This document shows positions 2,036 through 22,061 of a DNA stretch of 35,508 nt, piece by piece. The notes under the pieces were generated by a model that was not told where the DNA came from, did no database searches, and saw nothing but the letters and a program-made list of their open reading frames with translations. The position numbers and the translations under genes are program-made. How positions within the stretch are numbered: position 1 is the stretch's first letter; every line of letters begins with the position of its first letter. Origin of the DNA: a virus. The DNA lies in the IMG/VR virus record IMGVR_UViG_3300018432_000031, positions 1 through 35,508 of that record. One strand, given 5' to 3'.

Positions 2036-2078
2036 AAAAAAAACCAACCCTCGGCTCCGGCCGGGGGTTGGTTTTTTT
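2036..2078 (+). terminator. Strong intrinsic terminator with UNCG-type tetraloop
   Basis: A stem of 18 bp pairs 2037-2054 with 2061-2078, with a single G-T wobble. It begins right after the stop at 2035, carries an A-run on the left and seven T on the right, and is capped by C(TCCG)G, an extra-stable UNCG-type loop. The A-run means it should also stop transcription from the other strand. It closes the cassette at 1414-2035. Confidence 0.93.
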
Positions 2079-2280
2079 CATGCCCAGTTGAGGACGACAA
2101 GGGAGGAAACAAACCTACAGAGTGGTGGTGGTCAGGGTGGTAGCTGACATGCCGGCTAAGACGAGTAGGTAGCACGAGTGGTGGAAGCGAGTGGTAGGGG
2201 CGAGCTGGAGGCACGAGTAGGAAGACGTCTGGAGGAACGCAGCAGGAGGCCTGACCTGGGAAGCCCCTGGGAGGTACCCC

Positions 2281-4078: not shown

Positions 4079-4312
4079 ATGTCGCTCCAGTTCGACAACA
4101 CGGGCCCCGGACGGTGGAAGGCCCAAGACGAGACCGGCGACTACGAGGTGTCCCTGACCCGGACCGGCACCCATGTCCACATCGTGGTTCATGGGTCGGC
4201 CGGCGACCAGGTCAAGGACCACGATCCGGTGGACTCGATGAGGGCCTTCGACTTGTGTCAGGCCTACTGGGCGGTCCAGCAGCAACGGAGGAGGGCTTCC
4301 CATGGCGGCTGA
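4079..4312 (+). CDS. Hypothetical protein (77 aa)
   Basis: The ATG at 4079 was chosen because AGAGGAAAGG lies 8 nt upstream. A GTG at 4070 in the same frame would be too close to that site. The product (MSLQFDNTGPGRWKAQDETGDYEVSLTRTGTHVHIVVHG) begins with beta strands and ends in a helix, with no known domain. The next gene starts inside it (overlap 11 nt). Confidence 0.7.
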   Translation: MSLQFDNTGPGRWKAQDETGDYEVSLTRTGTHVHIVVHGSAGDQVKDHDPVDSMRAFDLCQAYWAVQQQRRRASHGG

Positions 4313-4859
4313 GGTGTTGGAGTTCGTCCCGGACGGCTCCCGGAAGTGCACGTCGTGCGGTCAGGTGAAGCCGCTCGTCGACTTCCCGCCGGTGGGTGGG
4401 TCGAAGTCGGGGACCCGGACCCGGAAGTGCCGGCGCTGCACCACCGATCAGGCGTACCAGCGGAACCGGGCCAAGCCTGACGTGGTGGAGACGAAGAAGG
4501 TCCGGAACCGGGCGTACCAGCGGACGAAGGCCCGCGGCGTGGAGTGGCTGCAGGCGGAGTTCCCCGATCGGTGGAACGCCTGGTTCACCGAGGAGCTGGC
4601 GGCGGCGAAGGCTGAGGCCGCTCAGATGGAGCCAGGCGCGAAGCTGCTGCCCGGCCCGAAGGCGAAGCATGAGGTGTCCGCCGTCGACCGGATCGCGGAG
4701 ATCTGCTCCGACTGCTCGAAGCATCACGTCGGCGGCCATGCCTGCGACGTCTGCGGGTCGAAGCCCGGGGAGCCGGCGAACACGGTCCCGATGGACAAGT
4801 TCCTCGAGACCGGCGAGATCCGGCTGCAACGAACAAAGGCCACGGTGATCCAGCCATGA
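4302..4859 (+). CDS. Protein with two zinc-finger-like modules (185 aa)
   Basis: A GGAGGAGGG site precedes the ATG. The first module, CTSCGQVKPLVDF...CRRC (about residues 16-46), is a Cys4 ribbon of the kind found next to HNH endonucleases in actinophages. A basic stretch and a helix-rich middle follow. A second module has CSDC (about 136-139) and CDVC (about 149-152). No H-N-H catalytic motif is visible, so it is better called a DNA-binding or zinc-ribbon protein than a nuclease. It overlaps the next gene by 4 nt. Confidence 0.75.
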   Translation: MAAEVLEFVPDGSRKCTSCGQVKPLVDFPPVGGSKSGTRTRKCRRCTTDQAYQRNRAKPDVVETKKVRNRAYQRTKARGVEWLQAEFPDRWNAWFTEELAAAKAEAAQMEPGAKLLPGPKAKHEVSAVDRIAEICSDCSKHHVGGHACDVCGSKPGEPANTVPMDKFLETGEIRLQRTKATVIQP

Positions 4860-5937: not shown

Positions 5938-6302
5938 AGATCACCGGCAGCCGCATCGAGAACACCCACACCACCGACCCGGCCTGGGTCCGGATCGTCG
6001 TCGTTGGGGAGGAGCCGGAACAGGAGGTGGCGCGGCGGCCGTACCGTCCGTGGCGGGCCTGGCAGCAGATCGTGATGGACGAGCTGCTCGACGACGGCAT
6101 GATCCCGGCCACCATGCAGTGGTCACCCGGCGCCTGCTCCTGCGGCTGCACGCAGGGGTTCCGGCTCGGTGGGATCACCGGGCTGGTCATCACGATGCAG
6201 CTCGACCCGGAGGGCTCGCTGCCGTATCTCGACGACCACCGCTGGGACGTGCAAAGGCGGCTCGCCGACTACCAGCAGCTGAAAGCGGCGGGGCATGCCT
6301 GA
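5934..6302 (+). CDS. Hypothetical protein (122 aa)
   Basis: The ATG overlaps the upstream stop by 4 nt. The product contains a CSCGC cluster in the middle (GACSCGCTQGFRLGG), which might bind metal, and flanking beta/alpha segments. The C-terminus is helical. No family is recognised. It overlaps the next gene by 8 nt. Confidence 0.7.
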   Translation: MKITGSRIENTHTTDPAWVRIVVVGEEPEQEVARRPYRPWRAWQQIVMDELLDDGMIPATMQWSPGACSCGCTQGFRLGGITGLVITMQLDPEGSLPYLDDHRWDVQRRLADYQQLKAAGHA

Positions 6303-6669
6303 GGAGGCCAACGCCTACGACATGGGCTACGAGGCCGGGCACGCCGCCGGCCGGGTCGCGACGATCGAGGGCGAGTTCATCGAGTGGTACTCGTCCATGC
6401 TCGACGACGGGCCCGAGGCGGAGAAGGTGTGCGTCGACGCCAAGTGCGGCCACATCGTCCTCTGGTCGGAGCACCTGAAGGCCGGGCGCCAGCCGGCCGC
6501 GTTTGTCGACCTCGGCCCGGTGCTGCACCTGTGGTCCGGGCAGGGCGCCACGCTCGGGCCCGACCTGGTCGACGAGCTCGCGGCCGCGCTCACCGCGTGG
6601 GCTGCCCGGAAGCGGGCCGGTGTCACGGCCAAGGCCGCAGGTACCGGCCAGGAGGTAGCCGGTCGCTAG
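6295..6669 (+). CDS. Hypothetical protein, last gene of the operon (124 aa)
   Basis: The ATG lies within the end of the previous gene, suggesting coupling. The protein starts MPEEANAYDMGYEAGHAAGRVATIEGEFIEWY, includes one CVDAKC pair, and has a long Ala-rich C-terminal helix. There is no known domain. It is the final gene before the structured intergenic element at 6677-6749. Confidence 0.7.
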   Translation: MPEEANAYDMGYEAGHAAGRVATIEGEFIEWYSSMLDDGPEAEKVCVDAKCGHIVLWSEHLKAGRQPAAFVDLGPVLHLWSGQGATLGPDLVDELAAALTAWAARKRAGVTAKAAGTGQEVAGR

Positions 6670-6676
6670 CGTCACC

Positions 6677-6749
6677 GGTGCACGGCGGAAGCGGACCGGA
6701 CGGCTTCCCACCCGAAAGGGTGCCCGCGTCGCACGCGGGGCCGTGCACC
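6677..6749 (+). other. Perfect four-way junction element (cloverleaf-like)
   Basis: Four perfect stems abut with no unpaired base between them. P1 pairs GGTGCACGGC (6677-6686) with GCCGTGCACC (6740-6749). P2 pairs GGAAGC (6687-6692) with GCTTCC (6703-6708), loop of 10. P3 pairs CACCC (6709-6713) with GGGTG (6718-6722), a GAAA tetraloop. P4 pairs CCCGCGT (6723-6729) with ACGCGGG (6733-6739), loop of 3. This makes 28 Watson-Crick pairs in 73 nt. It is not a tRNA: there is no anticodon loop, T-arm or 7-bp acceptor. It fills the gap between an operon's end and a leaderless promoter. It could act as a terminator, a structured RNA, or a cruciform in DNA. Confidence 0.7.
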
Positions 6750-6758
6750 TTCTGCGCG

Positions 6759-6764
6759 TAGCAT
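6759..6764 (+). promoter_or_regulatory. Leaderless -10 box (TAGCAT) for gene 6772
   Basis: TAGCAT fits TANNNT and is followed by exactly 7 nt and the ATG at 6772, so transcription would start at the start codon. There is no ribosome binding site before this ATG. No clear -35 box is seen. The same arrangement occurs at four other starts in this window. Confidence 0.6.
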
Positions 6765-6771
6765 CCTCGGC

Positions 6772-7110
6772 ATGGCAGGCATGGTGGATGCAGAGACCCC
6801 GAAGCACGGAATGCAGAACGAGACGCCGATCGAGGTGGAGCGGGACACGTATCCCGCCAGCCCGCCGGCGAACCTGCAGTTCATCCCACAGGGTCCCGTT
6901 CCCGTCCCGGCCTACGACGTCGAGGACGAATGCCACGTCGAGCTCGTCATTCGCATCGGTGGTGGCCAGCTGATCCTCCGCCGCGAGTGGCAGAACGAGC
7001 AGGCCTTCCACGACGAGGGGAAGCGGGCCCTCGTCGAGGCGCACAACATGGTCCAGCTGGCCAACGTGTACGTCGACACGCCAGCCGAGGACGTCACCGC
7101 GGGGTCTTGA
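6772..7110 (+). CDS. Hypothetical protein (112 aa)
   Basis: The ATG at 6772 fits a leaderless transcript. A second ATG three codons later is also possible. The N-terminal 45 residues are polar and Pro-rich (probably disordered). A beta-rich and helical core follows (HVELVIRIGGGQLILRREWQ...ALVEAHNMVQLANVYV). No family is recognised. Its 3' end overlaps a probable minus-strand gene by 17 nt. Confidence 0.7.
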   Translation: MAGMVDAETPKHGMQNETPIEVERDTYPASPPANLQFIPQGPVPVPAYDVEDECHVELVIRIGGGQLILRREWQNEQAFHDEGKRALVEAHNMVQLANVYVDTPAEDVTAGS

Positions 7111-7940: not shown

Positions 7941-8024
7941 TGTCGTATACAAATGCTAGGTTTGTAGACATGGCAGATGAGGAGAAGCGGAGTCGTGAGG
8001 TCGTCATCTCGTTTCGTGTCTACA
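7941..8024. promoter_or_regulatory. Leaderless promoter with TGTAGACA boxes
   Basis: TAGGTT (7957-7962) is followed by 7 nt and the ATG at 7970, fitting a leaderless start. TGTAGACA (7963-7970) overlaps the start codon, and its inverse TGTCTACA lies at 8017-8024 inside the gene. A looser half-site, TGTC-GTA-TACAAA, lies at 7941-7953. GGTTTGTAGACAT (7959-7971) is identical to 984-996. Autoregulation by the ribbon-helix-helix-like product is a reasonable inference. Confidence 0.55.
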
Positions 8025-8203: not shown

Positions 8204-8336
8204 CCGCTGGATCGACTTCTTCATCGCCGGCGCAATCACCGCGATCCTCACGTTCCTGCTGCTGACCATGACCGGCGCGTACGAGCTGATGTTCCTCGGC
8301 ATCCAGATCACGATGCGCGGGTTGCTTCATGGGTGA
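8196..8336 (+). CDS. Small membrane protein (46 aa)
   Basis: The GTG at 8196 follows GAGGAG with good spacing and overlaps the preceding stop. One clear hydrophobic segment (FFIAGAITAILTFLLLTM, about residues 7-25) makes this a single-pass membrane protein with a short amphipathic tail. Function unknown. Immunity or superinfection exclusion is possible but unsupported. It overlaps the next gene by 8 nt. Confidence 0.6.
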   Translation: MVSRWIDFFIAGAITAILTFLLLTMTGAYELMFLGIQITMRGLLHG

Positions 8337-8949
8337 GCCGGTCCGGCTCGGCGAGGTCGTCAGTCGAGGCGAGATCCTCGCCGGCCAGCGGTACGCCGTC
8401 TCCCGCGTCGTCCGGCCGCCGCTGCGTCAGGAGGAGGAGGTGGCGCAGGTGCTGCCGCTCGACGAGCACCAGCCGGGCACGGTGGCTGTCTTTGTGATGG
8501 TGTTCCCGTACCTGCCGCCGTCCAAGAACCAGTACGACGGCTGGGAGCACGGCTGGAAGTCCAGCGCGAAGCGGAAGTGGATCCGCGCCGTCGTCGACGA
8601 GTGCAAGCGGCAGAACCTGCCGAAGGGTGTCCCGACGATCGGCCTCTCCGCCCGGCTGACGTTCCCCGGCCGCGGCTACTCCCGGGACCCGCAGAACTAT
8701 GCGTCGACGCTGTGGAACTTCGTGCCCGACGCGCTCGAGGACAAGCAGCACGGAACGTACAAGACCGGCACCGGCGACAACGTCGTGGTGCATCCGCTGC
8801 GCGGCTACGGGCTGATCCCCGACGACCGGCAGGGCCGGATCCAGTTCGGGCCGAACCTCGGCATCCAGTTCGCGTTCGACGAGCGGAAAGCCATCCCGAA
8901 GGACCGCCGGAAGCGGACCCGGATCCAGATCGCAGTGAGGATGCCGTGA
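8329..8949 (+). CDS. RusA-like Holliday junction resolvase
   Basis: The 206-residue product has PYLPPSKNQ (about 60-68), RDPQNYASTLWNFVPDAL (about 119-136) and GLIPDDRQGRI (about 161-171). RusA-family enzymes share a PPSxN start, an acidic D-x-x-N...DAL stretch and a DD pair, where Asp residues bind the catalytic metal. They cut four-way DNA junctions during recombination or packaging. The first 50 residues are extra, and a later GTG at 8449 preceded by AGGAGGAGG might be the real start. A four-way junction sequence lies 1.6 kb upstream. Confidence 0.65.
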   Translation: MGEPVRLGEVVSRGEILAGQRYAVSRVVRPPLRQEEEVAQVLPLDEHQPGTVAVFVMVFPYLPPSKNQYDGWEHGWKSSAKRKWIRAVVDECKRQNLPKGVPTIGLSARLTFPGRGYSRDPQNYASTLWNFVPDALEDKQHGTYKTGTGDNVVVHPLRGYGLIPDDRQGRIQFGPNLGIQFAFDERKAIPKDRRKRTRIQIAVRMP

Positions 8950-9825: not shown

Positions 9826-9854
9826 CCCGACCTGGCGGGTCGCCGTCCTAGGCT
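9824..9854 (+). promoter_or_regulatory. Inverted repeat and leaderless -10 box before the terminase gene
   Basis: GACCCG (9824-9829) and CGGGTC (9836-9841) form a 6-bp inverted repeat with a 6-nt spacer, starting on the last base of the upstream gene's stop region. TAGGCT (9849-9854) then precedes the ATG at 9862 by exactly 7 nt. The repeat could terminate the upstream operon or be an operator near the -35 position. The -10 call rests on the repeated TANNNT-7-start pattern. Confidence 0.55.
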
Positions 9855-9861
9855 GCCCCCC

Positions 9862-10830
9862 ATGGTCGATCGGCAGCTGGGATGGGTGACGTTCGAGGAC
9901 CCCGACGACCCGTCGATCCCGCAGTTGCCGATCCGGGCGATCAACACCCGGACGTCGCTGTGGCCTGAGCGGTGGCCGGCGATCGCGCTGCAGACGTGCA
10001 TCGACGCCGTGGAGGCGTCCCCGCCGGACGAGCGGTCGATGGTGAAGTTCAACCTCCCCTGCCATACGTGCACGGAGGCGTCGCGGTGTCTGAACGCGAA
10101 GGCGAAGGAGCTCGGCCCGCTGCTGTACGACCGGGAGATCCTGACCACCCCGCGGTCCAGCGAGTCGACGCTGTTCCCCCGCGAGCTGTTCACGCCGATG
10201 CTGAACCGGTCCCTGTCGTTCCAGCGGTCCTACTGGAAGCCCGAAGGCCAGGAGCACCGGATCGCGGTGGCGCAGGCCTGGGACCTGGCGTGGTCGGAGC
10301 GGATCGGCGGGGACTACCTGGTCAACATGACCGCGGCCGTCGACACGACGACGGGGAAGTCGCAGCTGCTGCAGATCGAGCGGTGGCAGCGGAAGACGTT
10401 CGACGAGCAGTGCCGGCTGATCGAGATGAAGTGGCGGCAGTACCGCGCCGACCTGGTCGTGGTCGAGGGCGACGCGGCGCAGAAGGTGTGGTCGCAGCAC
10501 CTGGCGTCGTCGACGAACGTTCCCGTGCTGCCGCACACTGCCGGCGACAAGCGGAACCTGGCCACCGGTGTCCCGTCTCTGCTGATCCGGTTCCAGAACA
10601 AGAAGTGGGAGTTCCCGGCCGCGCCCGGTGGGTGGCAGGCCGAGGAGATGGACAACATGCTGGTCGAGTTCGAGTCGTTCGGCTGGGAGGACGGGAAGCT
10701 GCAGGGTGTCGGTGAGCACGACGACACCGTGATGTGCTTCTGGCATCTCGACTGGGCGATCAACTCGATGCTGATCCGCGCCGTGCCGCTGGAGTCGCAT
10801 GTCGGCGTCCAGTCCGGCCGCTACAACTAG
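9862..10830 (+). CDS. Terminase large subunit, nuclease domain only
   Basis: The 322-residue product matches the part of large terminases after the ATPase: a linker with SLWPERWPAIAL, a Cys cluster CHTCTEASRC (about 67-76), and ELGPLLYDREILTTPRSSESTLFP. An RNase H-like nuclease follows with AWDLAWS (Asp about 139), VVVEGDA and GEHDDTVM near the C-terminus supplying the acidic metal ligands. It cuts concatemers during packaging. The ATPase motor (Walker A and B) is absent, and no other gene in the window has it. The start is fixed by the leaderless promoter. Confidence 0.8.
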   Translation: MVDRQLGWVTFEDPDDPSIPQLPIRAINTRTSLWPERWPAIALQTCIDAVEASPPDERSMVKFNLPCHTCTEASRCLNAKAKELGPLLYDREILTTPRSSESTLFPRELFTPMLNRSLSFQRSYWKPEGQEHRIAVAQAWDLAWSERIGGDYLVNMTAAVDTTTGKSQLLQIERWQRKTFDEQCRLIEMKWRQYRADLVVVEGDAAQKVWSQHLASSTNVPVLPHTAGDKRNLATGVPSLLIRFQNKKWEFPAAPGGWQAEEMDNMLVEFESFGWEDGKLQGVGEHDDTVMCFWHLDWAINSMLIRAVPLESHVGVQSGRYN

Positions 10831-10838
10831 GAGGTCGG

Positions 10839-12629
10839 ATGGCCGTCTCAGTGTTCTCCGCCGGGCCTCGGCCGACGCAGCCGTCGGCGTACGCCGCGCC
10901 TGGCCGGCCCGTGTCCCGGGCCCGGCAGCTGGAGGCCGACGAGGAGTTGCGGAACGCGATCATCGCCCGCAACTGGCGGTACTACGAGGGCACGCAGTAC
11001 GACCAGGACAACGCTGACGCCGCGAAGGCGCTGAACCTGCAGCCGGACCAGCGGATGCCGGAGCATCAGCGGCTCCACGCCTACTCGACGCAGATCGCCG
11101 AATGCCTCGACTTCGTCGCCAACCAGATCACCGACGGGTTCGCGTTCATCGCCAACGCAGAGGCGGTGCAGAAGATCATCGAGGCCACGATCACCGCCAC
11201 CGACCAGCTCGGCACCGGTGAGGGTGAGGACCTGTCGTTCGACGATCTCGTCATCGCCGGCGGCCTGGCCGGGGACGTGCCGTACGAGGTGATGTGGGAC
11301 CCGATCGAGGAGACGACGTACCTCGAGTTCTGGCCGGCGGAGCAGGTGATCTTCGACGTTCCCAAGGGCAAGTGGGTGGAGAAGGTCACCCGGAAGCAGG
11401 TCATCATCGTCGAGACGTTCGACGGGCAGACCGTCGTGGAGCGGGAGGTGCGGGAGCGGACCGAGTACGAGCTCGTCACCCGCATCCACTCCTCCGAGGT
11501 GGGGCCGGTCGACTTCGAGGACCCCGAGGTGGACACGCCGTACCTGCTGGGTGACCTCGAGTCGCACATGGAATGCCGCAAGCAGGTGTTCTGGGACGAC
11601 AACGAGGAGCCCGAGTCGACGGAGTGGCTGGGGCTGCCGATGATCCCGTGGGGTCTGCTCCGGATCGACAAGAAGGGCCTCACCGGGTTCCGCGGCGACC
11701 CCATTGTCACCCGGAAGGCGATCGACAACGCCGACCGGTACAACGCCAACGAGCAGCACGCCTACCTGATCGCCCGCTACAACAGCCACGGCAACATCGC
11801 TGTCGTCGGTGACCAGGCGTTCCTGAAGCTGGAGATCGAGCCGTCGGTCTCCAAGGACGTCGCCGACGTCCTCCGCTTCCCCGGCGGCACCAACGTCATC
11901 CCGATCACCCTGCCGACGGACCCGCAGATGATCGAGCACACGAAGGGTGTGACGTCGGACGCCATCTACGCCTCGTTCGGTCTGACCCGGGTGGAGCCGG
12001 ACACCCTGACCGGGCTCGGCGGCATCAGTGGGTACGCCCTGGAGATCCTGAACCGGAAGTCCGACGGCACGTTCCGCCGGATCCGGCGCACCCTGCGCGC
12101 GGATTGCCGCACGATGTGGAACATGGCCCTCGACGTCACCGCATACCGGCAGGGCGCCACCCTCACGATCCCCGAGCTGGCCGACACGTTCGAGGACGAC
12201 CACGACCGGGAGGTCCCGCCGGCGCTGCTGCAGCCGGTCAACTTCTGGGAGATCGACCCCGCAACGGTGTTCTCCGACCGCAAGATCGAAGTCCGGATGG
12301 GGTCGGGCTACATCGTCGACCACGTCATGGTGAGGGATGACTTCGTCGCCGGTCTCATCTCGCAGGAGGAGGCGCTGAGGATGATCGGCCGCTCCGACCC
12401 GGAGATCGAGAAGATCCTCGGTGAGCAGGAGGCGAAGAAGCAGGTTGAGTTCGACCGGCAGAAGGAGACCCTCGAGTTGCAGGCTCAGAACCAGCTGCAG
12501 CTGGCGGAGGTCAACGCGCAGTCGCGGCAGGAGGAGATCAAGACCGCGGCCGCCGTCGCCCCGAAGCCGCCGCCGAAGGCGTCACCCGTGAAGGCTGGGT
12601 CAACCACCGGCTCCACTCAGCGCAAGTAG
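10839..12629 (+). CDS. Portal protein
   Basis: Preceded by AGGAGG. The ATG at 10839 gives 596 residues. Position directly after the terminase, size, and the alternating wing/stem/crown pattern (N-terminal RARQLEADEELRNAIIARNWRYYEG; central GLTGFRGDPIVTRKAIDNADRY; C-terminal coiled coil QVEFDRQKETLELQAQNQLQLAEVNAQ followed by a Pro/Lys tail) fit a dodecameric siphovirus portal. It forms the vertex channel for DNA entry and binds the terminase. The last 30 nt overlap the minus-strand nuclease gene. Confidence 0.82.
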   Translation: MAVSVFSAGPRPTQPSAYAAPGRPVSRARQLEADEELRNAIIARNWRYYEGTQYDQDNADAAKALNLQPDQRMPEHQRLHAYSTQIAECLDFVANQITDGFAFIANAEAVQKIIEATITATDQLGTGEGEDLSFDDLVIAGGLAGDVPYEVMWDPIEETTYLEFWPAEQVIFDVPKGKWVEKVTRKQVIIVETFDGQTVVEREVRERTEYELVTRIHSSEVGPVDFEDPEVDTPYLLGDLESHMECRKQVFWDDNEEPESTEWLGLPMIPWGLLRIDKKGLTGFRGDPIVTRKAIDNADRYNANEQHAYLIARYNSHGNIAVVGDQAFLKLEIEPSVSKDVADVLRFPGGTNVIPITLPTDPQMIEHTKGVTSDAIYASFGLTRVEPDTLTGLGGISGYALEILNRKSDGTFRRIRRTLRADCRTMWNMALDVTAYRQGATLTIPELADTFEDDHDREVPPALLQPVNFWEIDPATVFSDRKIEVRMGSGYIVDHVMVRDDFVAGLISQEEALRMIGRSDPEIEKILGEQEAKKQVEFDRQKETLELQAQNQLQLAEVNAQSRQEEIKTAAAVAPKPPPKASPVKAGSTTGSTQRK

Positions 12630-19343: not shown

Positions 19344-22061
19344 ATGGCCACCCTCGTCCAGGAGGCCAATGTCGCTGTAGGTCCCGGCGCGAACAACGTC
19401 ACCGCCACCCTGGCCGCGGCGACGACACCCGGGAACCTGCTGATCCTCGCGGTCGGCTGCGACAAGCAGGGCACCTACACGGTGTCCGACAACTTCCCCA
19501 ACCAGCCTGTTGCACTGACCGGTCTGTCGACGTCGCTGCACGTCTTCTGGAAGGTCGCCGACGGCACAGAGCAGTCAGTGGTCGCGACCCGCAACGCCAA
19601 CTCCGCCTCCGGCGACAACGTCTGGTACGCCGAGTACTCCGACACCGGCCCCAGCGCATGGGAGTTGGTGGCATCCTCAACCGCCAACGGTGGTGAGACT
19701 GATGTCGCGTCCCTGTCGACCGGCTCGACGGGCATCATCCCCGGCGACGGCTTCGTCCAGGGCTTCGCGTTCGCCTCCAACGACTCCCACAACGGCGGCA
19801 CCGCGTCCTGGACGAACTCGTACGTCGCGATCCGGAACACGCAGCTGGGAGCGACCGGCGCGGGTGGTTTGTGGGTCTCCGGTCGGACCGTGTCCACCGG
19901 TGTCTCGACGTCGACCACCCCGACGATCTCGTCCGGCGTCGACCAGATGCACGCCGCCGTCCTGGTGTTCGCGCAGCCCGCCTCGGTCATCGCCGACGGG
20001 TACATCCTCCAGGAAGACGACACCTCCAAGATCCTGCTCGAGGACGGCACCGGGGCACTCGTCGGCGAGGCGTACGAGCCGCCGACCGGCCAGAACGAGG
20101 TCGGAACCGCGACTCTCACCGGCTCCGGTTCGCTGTCGACCGCCGGCGTTCCCGCGATCGGCCGGACCGTCGCCCTGTCCGGATCCGGCACCCTCGCCGC
20201 CGCTGGCGCCCCTGCAGCTGCCGGTGCAGCGGGTCTGTCCGGCTCCGGAACGCTGGCCACGACGCAGACGCCTCGTCCGGCTCAGACGGTCGCTCTCAGC
20301 GGCGCGGGGACGCTGTCGACGACCGGCGTCACCGGGTACCGCGGCACGGCCACTCTCAGCGGCTCCGGGACCCTGGCCACCGCAGGCCAGCCCGGAGTGT
20401 CCCAGACTGCCAACCTCTCAGGTACTGGGGCCCTCAACACCACGCCATCACCGGCTATAGCCCGAGTAACAGCCCTATCGGGATCGGGCCAACTGTCTAC
20501 AACCGGGGCCCTGTCCACCGGAGTACAGGCCACGCTAGCCGGATCCGGATCTCTCGCAGCTGGAGGAGCACCGGTCGCTGCCACGTCGGCCGCGCTGTCC
20601 GGCGCCGGCAGCCTGTCCACCACCGCGGCCCTGGCCGTCTCCGCCGTCGCGGCGCTCACCGGTGTTGGGCAGCTGGCCACCCTCGGCGGTACCGGCGGCT
20701 ACTCCACCGGCTACACCGCCGGCTACGGCTCGCCGACGTTCCTGGCCACCGCGACGCTGTCCGGTTCCGGCGCTCTGACGGTTGTCGGGAAGCCCGGCCT
20801 CCCTGGCGTCGCCGCCCTGTCGGGTTCGGGCACGATCACCGTCGGTGGGAAGCCCGGTCCTGCAGCTGCCGTGGCGCTGTCCGGCGCTGGCACGCTGACC
20901 ACGACTCAGACGCCCCGCCCCACCGGTGCGGCGGCTCTGAGCGGTACTGGCACGCTGACGTCGGCGCAGACGCCCCGGCCTGCCCCTGCGGCTGCCCTCA
21001 CCGGGTCCGGCACGCTGGCCACCGCCGCCGTCCTCACCGTGGCAGGCACCGCGACGCTGTCGGGAGCCGGCACGCTGGTCGCCTTCGCCGCCGGGCAGAC
21101 GTTCGCTGACTTCAGCGGGTCCGGCACCCTGACCGCCGCTGGCGCGCTGGCCGTATCGCGGACCGCGATACTGTCCGGCTCGGGCACGCTGACTGCGGCC
21201 GCAGTTCCCGCTCTGGTCGCCGGAGCCGCCCTGTCCGGGTCCGGGCTGCTGACCGCTGCCGGTGTAGCCCGCTACTCAGTAGCGGCCGCTCTGTCCGGGT
21301 CCGGGCTCCTGGAGGTGGCGAGCAAGCTCGGAGCAACCTCGGGCGCCGCGTTGTCCGGAATCGGTGTCCTGACCGCCACCGCAGGGAACATCGGCACCGT
21401 CACGCTGGAGGGGTCGGGCACCCTGCTCGTCGCCTGGTACGTCCGCCTCGTCCAGGGTGGCGGGTTCGCCGGCGACGGTGACCTGTACGCCGAAGGTGTG
21501 GCGTACGAGCGGCCGCGGCCGCAGCCTGGGCCCGGCGCCAGGTGGCAGGTGGGTGGGGAGCCGCAGATCAGCCTCGGCGGCGGGACGCTGGTCCTCGACG
21601 GACCCGGCAGCCTGCGGGTCGGCGCCGAACGGACACCCGAGGTGGTCACCGTGATACAAGGTGACTCGCTGGCCAACCAACTGCAGAGCTCGCTGTTGGA
21701 CGATGACGTGGCGGGACCAACGGTGGAGGAGGTGCGGAGCGTGGCGCAGGACCAGCTGCTGTACGACTTCACCATCCGCAACCGGGTCCCGAACGGCACC
21801 GACGACGACGGCAACCCGAAGTACTCGTGGGTCGACTCGTTCTCCGGGCTCGCGCTGGAGTACGAGATGCGGACCGAGGTCAACGACCGCACCGGAACCT
21901 CCGTCGTTCGCTGCTGGGTCGTGATGAACAACGTCGGCAACGTCCCCATCGAGGAGAAGGCGGTCGCCGTCGACACCACCAACGGTGTCGTGTGGCGGAT
22001 CCTGTGGAACTCCGACCTACCCGGGCAGTCGCGGCTCCACCTGGAGCGTCTCGATGCCTAG
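19344..22061 (+). CDS. Long appendage protein with about 24 SGSGTL repeats
   Basis: 905 residues in three parts. Residues about 1-215 form a beta jelly-roll-like module (VAVGPGANNVTATLAAATTPGNLLILAVG...). Residues about 255-762 contain about 24 tandem repeats near 21 residues long, each with LSGSGTL or a close variant followed by a Pro/Ala/Thr-rich spacer. One GGYSTGYTAGYG stretch breaks the array. The last 140 residues (VIQGDSLANQLQSSLLDDDVAG...) are acidic and unlike the repeats and may attach it to the head-tail region. It is probably an extended fibre. Function inferred from architecture. Confidence 0.7.
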   Translation: MATLVQEANVAVGPGANNVTATLAAATTPGNLLILAVGCDKQGTYTVSDNFPNQPVALTGLSTSLHVFWKVADGTEQSVVATRNANSASGDNVWYAEYSDTGPSAWELVASSTANGGETDVASLSTGSTGIIPGDGFVQGFAFASNDSHNGGTASWTNSYVAIRNTQLGATGAGGLWVSGRTVSTGVSTSTTPTISSGVDQMHAAVLVFAQPASVIADGYILQEDDTSKILLEDGTGALVGEAYEPPTGQNEVGTATLTGSGSLSTAGVPAIGRTVALSGSGTLAAAGAPAAAGAAGLSGSGTLATTQTPRPAQTVALSGAGTLSTTGVTGYRGTATLSGSGTLATAGQPGVSQTANLSGTGALNTTPSPAIARVTALSGSGQLSTTGALSTGVQATLAGSGSLAAGGAPVAATSAALSGAGSLSTTAALAVSAVAALTGVGQLATLGGTGGYSTGYTAGYGSPTFLATATLSGSGALTVVGKPGLPGVAALSGSGTITVGGKPGPAAAVALSGAGTLTTTQTPRPTGAAALSGTGTLTSAQTPRPAPAAALTGSGTLATAAVLTVAGTATLSGAGTLVAFAAGQTFADFSGSGTLTAAGALAVSRTAILSGSGTLTAAAVPALVAGAALSGSGLLTAAGVARYSVAAALSGSGLLEVASKLGATSGAALSGIGVLTATAGNIGTVTLEGSGTLLVAWYVRLVQGGGFAGDGDLYAEGVAYERPRPQPGPGARWQVGGEPQISLGGGTLVLDGPGSLRVGAERTPEVVTVIQGDSLANQLQSSLLDDDVAGPTVEEVRSVAQDQLLYDFTIRNRVPNGTDDDGNPKYSWVDSFSGLALEYEMRTEVNDRTGTSVVRCWVVMNNVGNVPIEEKAVAVDTTNGVVWRILWNSDLPGQSRLHLERLDA
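20107..21630 (+). repeat. Coding tandem repeat array (about 63-bp units)
   Basis: About 24 diverged copies of a unit encoding x-LSGSGTL-x-(A/T/P-rich) lie within the 905-aa gene. Spacing is near 21 codons with some shorter and longer copies. Copies around 20395-20570 use clearly different synonymous codons (CTA, TCA, GTA, GGA) from the others. Confidence 0.75.

What the first reader, a model, noticed from the sequence alone, without database searches (positions are those of the whole stretch)
6677..6749. Perfect four-way junction in an intergenic gap
Four uninterrupted stems (10, 6, 5 and 7 bp; 28 Watson-Crick pairs) abut with no unpaired base at the junction and fill 73 of the 102 nt between two genes. 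P3 carries a GAAA tetraloop. It lacks every tRNA landmark. It could be a multi-hairpin terminator, a structured RNA made at the end of the operon, or a cruciform in supercoiled DNA. A RusA-like junction resolvase is encoded 1.6 kb downstream, so the idea that the phage carries a programmed substrate is testable. The stems are seen directly. The role is inference.
Basis: partly seen in the sequence, partly recalled or inferred. Interest (0 to 1): 0.8.

Follow-up and report, generated by a model that had tools for sequence, protein, structure and literature searches.

The report
Cloverleaf-shaped terminator between two phage operons
A 73-letter stretch between two genes of an uncultured bacterial virus is built to fold into a very stable four-armed knot that sits just before a second gene's start signal; it is most likely an unusually elaborate transcription stop signal, not a target for DNA-cutting enzymes.

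Summary
Window 6677-6749 folds into a four-way junction of perfect stems (10, 6, 5 and 7 bp) with no unpaired base at the junction. MFE is -51.4 kcal/mol, z about -5 to -7. None of 779 whole-window shuffles held more than 21 such pairs, against 28 here. It is the most extreme structure in the window.

The new evidence is its setting. Directly downstream lies a leaderless-promoter signature, TAGCAT-N7-ATG (6759-6774). Only three of 317 plus-strand ATGs have TANNNT-N7, and all three are gene starts. In two related Arthrobacter phages the gap before the terminase-nuclease gene holds a canonical U-tailed terminator; in one of them the same TAG-N7-ATG promoter follows it. The junction thus occupies the terminator position of a terminator-promoter module. 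Its tail (TTCTGCGCGT, 4 U in 10) and 3'UTR length (about 84 nt) resemble those measured for Streptomyces terminators.

The RusA idea is not supported. Every relative whose contig reaches that region carries RusA beside the terminase, and none carries the junction. No sequence homologue, Rfam match, tRNA or covariation was found, so conservation is untested.

Best reading: a multibranched, weak-U intrinsic terminator or 3'-end insulator, confidence about 0.6. Function is inferred.

The parts
6295..6669 (+). upstream gene, 124 aa, unknown function, last gene of the upstream operon; stop codon 8 nt before the structure
   Evidence: ORF list; no Pfam/PHROG match at significance; no homologue in viral contigs or phages
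6677..6686 (+). P1, 5' strand of the closing stem (GGTGCACGGC)
6687..6708 (+). P2 hairpin, 6 bp, 10-nt loop GGACCGGACG
6709..6722 (+). P3 hairpin, 5 bp, GAAA tetraloop (GNRA on the + strand)
6723..6739 (+). P4 hairpin, 7 bp, CGC triloop
6740..6749 (+). P1, 3' strand of the closing stem (GCCGTGCACC)
6750..6759 (+). weak U tail TTCTGCGCGT (4 U in 10 nt), proposed 3' end of the upstream transcript at about 6753
   Evidence: composition counted; comparison with Streptomyces Term-seq terminators in PMC12207403; inference
6759..6764 (+). TAGCAT, -10 element (TANNNT) of a leaderless promoter, 7 nt before the ATG
6772..7110 (+). downstream gene, 112 aa, unknown function, no Shine-Dalgarno, predicted leaderless

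Best explanation
The element is an intrinsic-type transcription terminator, or 3'-end insulator, of unusual multibranched form. It closes the operon ending at 6669 and shields the leaderless promoter of the next gene (6772). As polymerase crosses the gap the RNA folds P2, P3 and P4 in turn. The last ten nucleotides then zip P1 shut, adding about 17 kcal/mol beside a short U-containing tail (UUCU), so the polymerase stops or the 3' end is protected from exonucleases. A few nucleotides on, a new transcript starts at the ATG at 6772. Shown: the structure, its significance and the promoter signature with its positional specificity. Inferred: termination, the 3' end and the leaderless start.
For: The structure is far outside chance. 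It lies between a stop codon and TAGCAT-N7-ATG. On the + strand only ATGs 6772, 7970 and 9862 (terminase nuclease) have TANNNT-N7, all gene starts, and on the - strand only 7240, also a gene start. The same TAGGCT-N7-ATG precedes the terminase-nuclease gene of DanielleIgnace, and TAGGAT-N7-ATG precedes the gene after the terminase in L008 and L010. In DanielleIgnace a long hairpin followed by TTTT sits directly upstream of that promoter; Kitkat has an equivalent terminator in the same gap. Streptomyces Term-seq terminators have 3-4 U in the first 10 nt, a termination point about 4 nt after the stem and a 66-76 nt 3'UTR (PMC12207403); here 4 U, UUCU, and about 84 nt if the end is at 6753. TANNNT is the -10 element and 22% of mRNAs are leaderless in S. 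avermitilis (PMC8780764). Prefix folding shows P2, P3 and P4 forming before P1.
Against: The U tract is weak, and this same phage has a canonical terminator with a 7-T run at 2036-2079, so it can use strong U tracts. Mycobacterial polymerase reportedly needs a U tract in vitro (title of Czyz 2014, cited in PMC12288462; the paper itself was not readable). A four-way junction is a needlessly complex shape for a terminator, and no relative shows one. A gene start with the same promoter signature at 7970 has no strong hairpin upstream. No transcript data exist and the host is unknown.
Confidence: 0.6

Rival explanations
1. A stable structured RNA in its own right: an sRNA or processed 3'UTR fragment released from the upstream transcript, working through the P2 loop or by resisting exonucleases.
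For: Strong fold on the + strand, GNRA tetraloop on the transcribed strand, no competing structure.
Against: No sequence or structural homologue and no dedicated promoter recognised between the upstream stop and the structure. Perfect Watson-Crick stems without G-U or internal loops are unlike most functional ncRNAs (established knowledge).
Confidence: 0.15
2. A cis-regulatory leader of the gene at 6772 within a polycistronic mRNA, for example blocking or insulating its translation.
For: It ends 22 nt before the ATG at 6772.
Against: The gene has no Shine-Dalgarno and carries a leaderless-promoter signature that would leave the structure out of its mRNA. There is no alternative fold to switch to.
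Confidence: 0.1
3. A DNA-level element: a binding, packaging (cos/pac) or recombination site in which the P1 inverted repeat is what matters.
For: Both strands fold equally well because no pair is G-U. An inverted repeat closed by the same GTGCACGGC/GCCGTGCAC, often followed by TTCTG, is conserved in Streptomyces phage-plasmids, in several upstream of terminase genes.
Against: The phage-plasmid element was fetched by that repeat, its interior differs, and only TTCTG is independent similarity. The window element is not next to a terminase gene, and the half-site is not enriched in the window.
Confidence: 0.08
4. A programmed Holliday-junction substrate (cruciform) for the phage RusA-like or endonuclease VII-like enzyme.
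For: RusA-like gene at 8329-8949 and an endonuclease VII-like gene at 4302-4859.
Against: RusA sits beside the terminase in relatives that lack the junction, which points to a packaging or recombination role. DNA parameters give only -32 kcal/mol for the strand, and extrusion of an inverted repeat with a 53-nt GC-rich spacer is unfavourable (established knowledge).
Confidence: 0.03
5. A small inserted element (MITE-like, or a diversity-generating-retroelement target hairpin) with no current regulatory role.
For: 10-bp perfect terminal inverted repeats; GAAA loop as in DGR hairpins (PMC3240598).
Against: Single copy in the window, no template/variable repeat pair, no target-site duplication seen at the edges, stem too short for a DGR hairpin (7-10 bp expected, 5 bp here).
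Confidence: 0.04

Closest known systems
Weak-U (Streptomyces-type or 'I-shaped') intrinsic terminators of GC-rich actinobacteria
   Same: Very stable GC-rich structure soon after a stop codon, 4 U in the next 10 nt, about 84-nt 3'UTR, upstream of a new promoter.
   Different: A 73-nt four-way junction instead of one hairpin; longer than the 59-nt stem-loop limit used in the Term-seq annotation pipeline quoted in PMC12207403.
Canonical terminators in the terminase-nuclease gap of Arthrobacter phages DanielleIgnace and Kitkat
   Same: Same type of gap in related phages; in DanielleIgnace followed by the same TAG-N7-ATG promoter.
   Different: Single (DanielleIgnace) or lightly extended (Kitkat) hairpins with TTTT tails, at a different gene boundary, no sequence similarity.
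GTGCACGGC-closed element in Streptomyces phage-plasmids (pSAM1 type)
   Same: Same closing-stem sequence and, offset by one base, TTCTG after it.
   Different: Conserved interior CGGCGCGGGGAC absent here; different fold, gene context and flanks; homology not shown.
tRNA cloverleaf
   Same: 73 nt, four helices.
   Different: No linkers, 10-bp closing stem, 4-nt and 3-nt loops, no CCA end; rejected by ARAGORN and Rfam.
DGR target-site hairpin/cruciform
   Same: GC-rich stem with a GRNA loop after a gene end.
   Different: 5-bp stem within a larger junction; no VR/TR repeats in the window.

Membership tests
Intrinsic (Rho-independent) terminator | Stable GC-rich RNA structure shortly after a stop codon | tested here: met
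   MFE -51.4, starts 8 nt after the stop at 6669
Intrinsic (Rho-independent) terminator | U-rich tract immediately after the stem | tested here: inconclusive
   4 U in 10 nt: below the canonical 7-9, within the 3-4 reported for Streptomyces
Intrinsic (Rho-independent) terminator | Single stem-loop | tested here: not met
   Three hairpins enclosed by P1; hence described as working like a terminator and filed as a variant only
Intrinsic (Rho-independent) terminator | Stops transcription, giving an RNA 3' end | not testable with these tools
   Needs 3'-end mapping or a reporter
Leaderless promoter (downstream partner) | TANNNT about 7 nt upstream of an ATG without Shine-Dalgarno | tested here: met
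   TAGCAT-N7-ATG 6772; only 3 of 317 + strand ATGs, all gene starts
tRNA or tmRNA | Cloverleaf with linkers, 7-bp acceptor, 7-nt anticodon and T loops | tested here: not met
   ARAGORN none; Rfam none to E 10
Any of 4227 Rfam families | Covariance-model match | tested here: not met
Conserved structured RNA | Compensatory changes across homologues | tested here: inconclusive
   No homologue found in the viral, phage or plasmid collections searched or in relatives, so nothing to align
RusA substrate / DNA cruciform | Junction co-occurs with the resolvase and is cut by it | tested here: not met
   Co-occurrence not met: relatives with RusA lack the junction; cleavage itself not testable
DGR target hairpin | 7-10 bp stem with GRNA loop downstream of a VR that has a TR copy | tested here: not met
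   5-bp stem; no repeat pair in the window

The most novel reading that the evidence does not exclude
The junction is not a mere stop signal but a phage-encoded compact four-way-junction RNA or DNA element of an undescribed class (exonuclease-resistant RNA 3' end, or packaging/recombination signal), perhaps sharing ancestry with the GTGCACGGC-closed element of Streptomyces phage-plasmids.
Probability: 0.1. Interest if true: 0.55.

Novelty: new variant of a known kind. Interest (0 to 1): 0.33.

Why it matters
If it terminates, it shows that GC-rich phages can replace the U tract with a compact multibranched fold. Single-hairpin terminator finders would miss such signals: the window's terminator-pattern scan did not list it. 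It would also be a ready-made compact insulator for GC-rich hosts and a test case for how junction folding acts on polymerase. The leaderless-promoter signature next to it gives a simple way to mark transcript starts in this poorly known phage group.

Tried and rejected
tRNA or tmRNA (ARAGORN) and any Rfam family at gathering score or E 10: none.

Sequence homologues of the element: blastn in phages (chance-level pieces only) and plasmids (none); exact P1 repeat in viral contigs (none).

Homologues of the two flanking proteins in viral contigs and phages: none, so no gap-to-gap comparison was possible.

Relatives through portal, RusA, terminase nuclease and capsid: found, but none has a comparable junction.

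Prophage relatives in bacterial genomes through the terminase: only one distant hit (27%).

Relaxed P1 repeat: 39 contigs, no perfect four-way junction. It did reveal a conserved element in Streptomyces phage-plasmids; a link to the window element is not established.

DGR hairpin, suggested by the GAAA loop: rejected.

P1 as a repeated protein-binding half-site: 9 near matches against 8.2 expected.

Literature on branched, cloverleaf or cruciform terminators: no paper found under those names.

Full report
OBSERVATION. The finding is accurate to the base. Window 6677-6749 reads as four perfect stems: P1 10 bp, P2 6 bp with a 10-nt loop, P3 5 bp with a GAAA loop, P4 7 bp with a CGC loop. They abut without any linker. 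MFE is -51.4 kcal/mol on the + strand (z -5.1, 0 of 200 shuffles) and -49.1 on the - strand. All designed pairs but one have probability above 0.96 (the loop-closing pair of P4 is 0.81). An exact search for zero-linker four-way junctions finds one in the window, with 28 pairs; 779 dinucleotide shuffles of the whole 35.5 kb gave at most 21 pairs. Scanned in 75-nt windows it is the strongest fold of the window, z -7.3. In 915 kb of related contigs, unrelated actinophages and other viral contigs the best comparable junction had 19 pairs. It is real, and very unlikely to be chance.

SETTING. The window is an IMG/VR record of 35.5 kb, likely a fragment, 67.6% GC. Its terminase-nuclease, RusA-like, portal and capsid genes place it near Arthrobacter phages KellEzio/Kitkat (Kelleziovirus) and DanielleIgnace at 40-60% protein identity, and near IMG/VR contigs L008, L010, L011 and L013 (terminase 55-64%). 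The two genes flanking the junction (6295-6669 and 6772-7110) have no detectable relatives.

THE PROMOTER NEXT DOOR. Between the structure and the next gene lies TAGCAT, then seven bases, then ATG (6759-6774). The gene has no Shine-Dalgarno sequence. Among 317 plus-strand ATGs, TANNNT exactly seven bases upstream occurs at 6772, 7970 and 9862 only, and all three are gene starts. On the minus strand the only ATG case, 7240, begins a small gene as well. The binomial chance of three or more such gene starts among about 45 is of order 1e-5 (1e-4 if three spacings are allowed), though the pattern was chosen after seeing the first case. The same signature, TAGGCT-N7-ATG, precedes the terminase-nuclease gene of DanielleIgnace, and TAGGAT-N7-ATG precedes the gene after the terminase in L008 and L010. 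TANNNT is the measured -10 element of Streptomyces avermitilis, where 22% of mRNAs are leaderless (PMC8780764). I infer that a leaderless transcript starts at 6772.

WHAT THE STRUCTURE THEN DOES. In DanielleIgnace the gap in front of the terminase-nuclease gene contains a long hairpin with TTTT followed by the leaderless-type promoter. In Kitkat the same gap contains a stem with TTTT. The window's junction occupies the terminator position of such a terminator-promoter gap. Its tail is poor in U: TTCTGCGCGT, 4 of 10. Measured Streptomyces terminators have just 3-4 U in those ten bases, end about 4 nt after the stem, and have 3'UTRs of 66-76 nt (PMC12207403); here the predicted 3'UTR is about 84 nt. 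Folding of nested prefixes shows P2, P3 and P4 forming first and P1 closing last, with about 17 kcal/mol gained over the final nine nucleotides. That behaviour suits either termination or protection of the 3' end. The phage also owns a textbook terminator at 2036-2079, so the branched form is not its only type.

RIVALS. A free structured RNA cannot be excluded, but no promoter or homologue supports it. A leader for the gene at 6772 is unlikely if the transcript is leaderless. The RusA idea fails the simplest test: RusA sits beside the terminase in relatives that have no junction. An endonuclease VII-like gene at 4302-4859 adds a second junction enzyme nearby, but both families are common in phages. 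A DNA packaging or binding site remains a minor possibility. A search for the P1 repeat uncovered a conserved inverted-repeat element in Streptomyces phage-plasmids, in several upstream of terminase genes. It shares the closing-stem sequence that was used to find it, and the bases TTCTG after it (offset by one), but not its interior or fold. I do not claim homology.

LIMITS. No transcript data are available and the host is unknown. The terminator reading rests on position, stability and analogy. I put it at 0.6.

VERDICT. A real, highly significant four-way-junction fold. Most likely an unusual, multibranched weak-U terminator or insulator between two operons: a new variant of a known kind, of moderate interest.

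Noticed in passing
L029 (reverse) 4417-4486, L032 4958-5024, L042 4274-4351, L049 1166-1222, L051 1298-1368, L065 (reverse) 11317-11372; plasmid loci L070-L077: Conserved unannotated element in Streptomyces phage-plasmids (pSAM1 type, 87-94 kb), in several of them upstream of the terminase genes: GCACGGCCC...CGGCGCGGGGAC...GGGCCGTGCAC TTCTGATGGTG...GGGTTTGTC. The closing stem shows compensatory changes by eye (L072, L075). No Rfam match in the six viral contigs. Candidate packaging site or structured RNA.
   Followed up: partly
window 6759-6774, 7957-7972, 9849-9864 (+) and 7240 (-): TANNNT-N7-ATG leaderless-promoter signature, almost exclusive to gene starts and shared by related phages.
   Followed up: yes
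window 2036-2079: Textbook terminator: A8 run, GC-rich core, T7 run; symmetric, so probably bidirectional.
   Followed up: partly
window 9862-10830: Terminase large subunit present only as the nuclease domain; the separate ATPase gene of KellEzio has no clear counterpart in this contig (best tblastn E 0.04), so it lies outside the fragment or is too diverged.
   Followed up: partly
window 4302-4859: Endonuclease VII-like gene (PHROG 1035, E 4e-9): a second junction-resolving enzyme family near the RusA-like gene.
   Followed up: no
window 7240-7094 (-); L010 5575-5384 (-), L008 1938 (-): Small minus-strand gene (motif RAALExSLRxFL) next to a ribbon-helix-helix-like gene, present in L008 and L010 too; possible unannotated control module.
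   Followed up: partly
window 7943-7969: Inverted repeat TACAAA...TTTGTA overlapping the -10 element of the gene at 7970, a likely operator.
   Followed up: no
window 19344-22061: 905-aa predicted protein with many copies of an ALSGSGTL-type repeat in the structural gene region.
   Followed up: no
L003 3566-3640, 4621-4695, 6751-6825: Contig sharing the RusA-like gene carries three very long hairpins (about 17-19 bp), one just after RusA.
   Followed up: no
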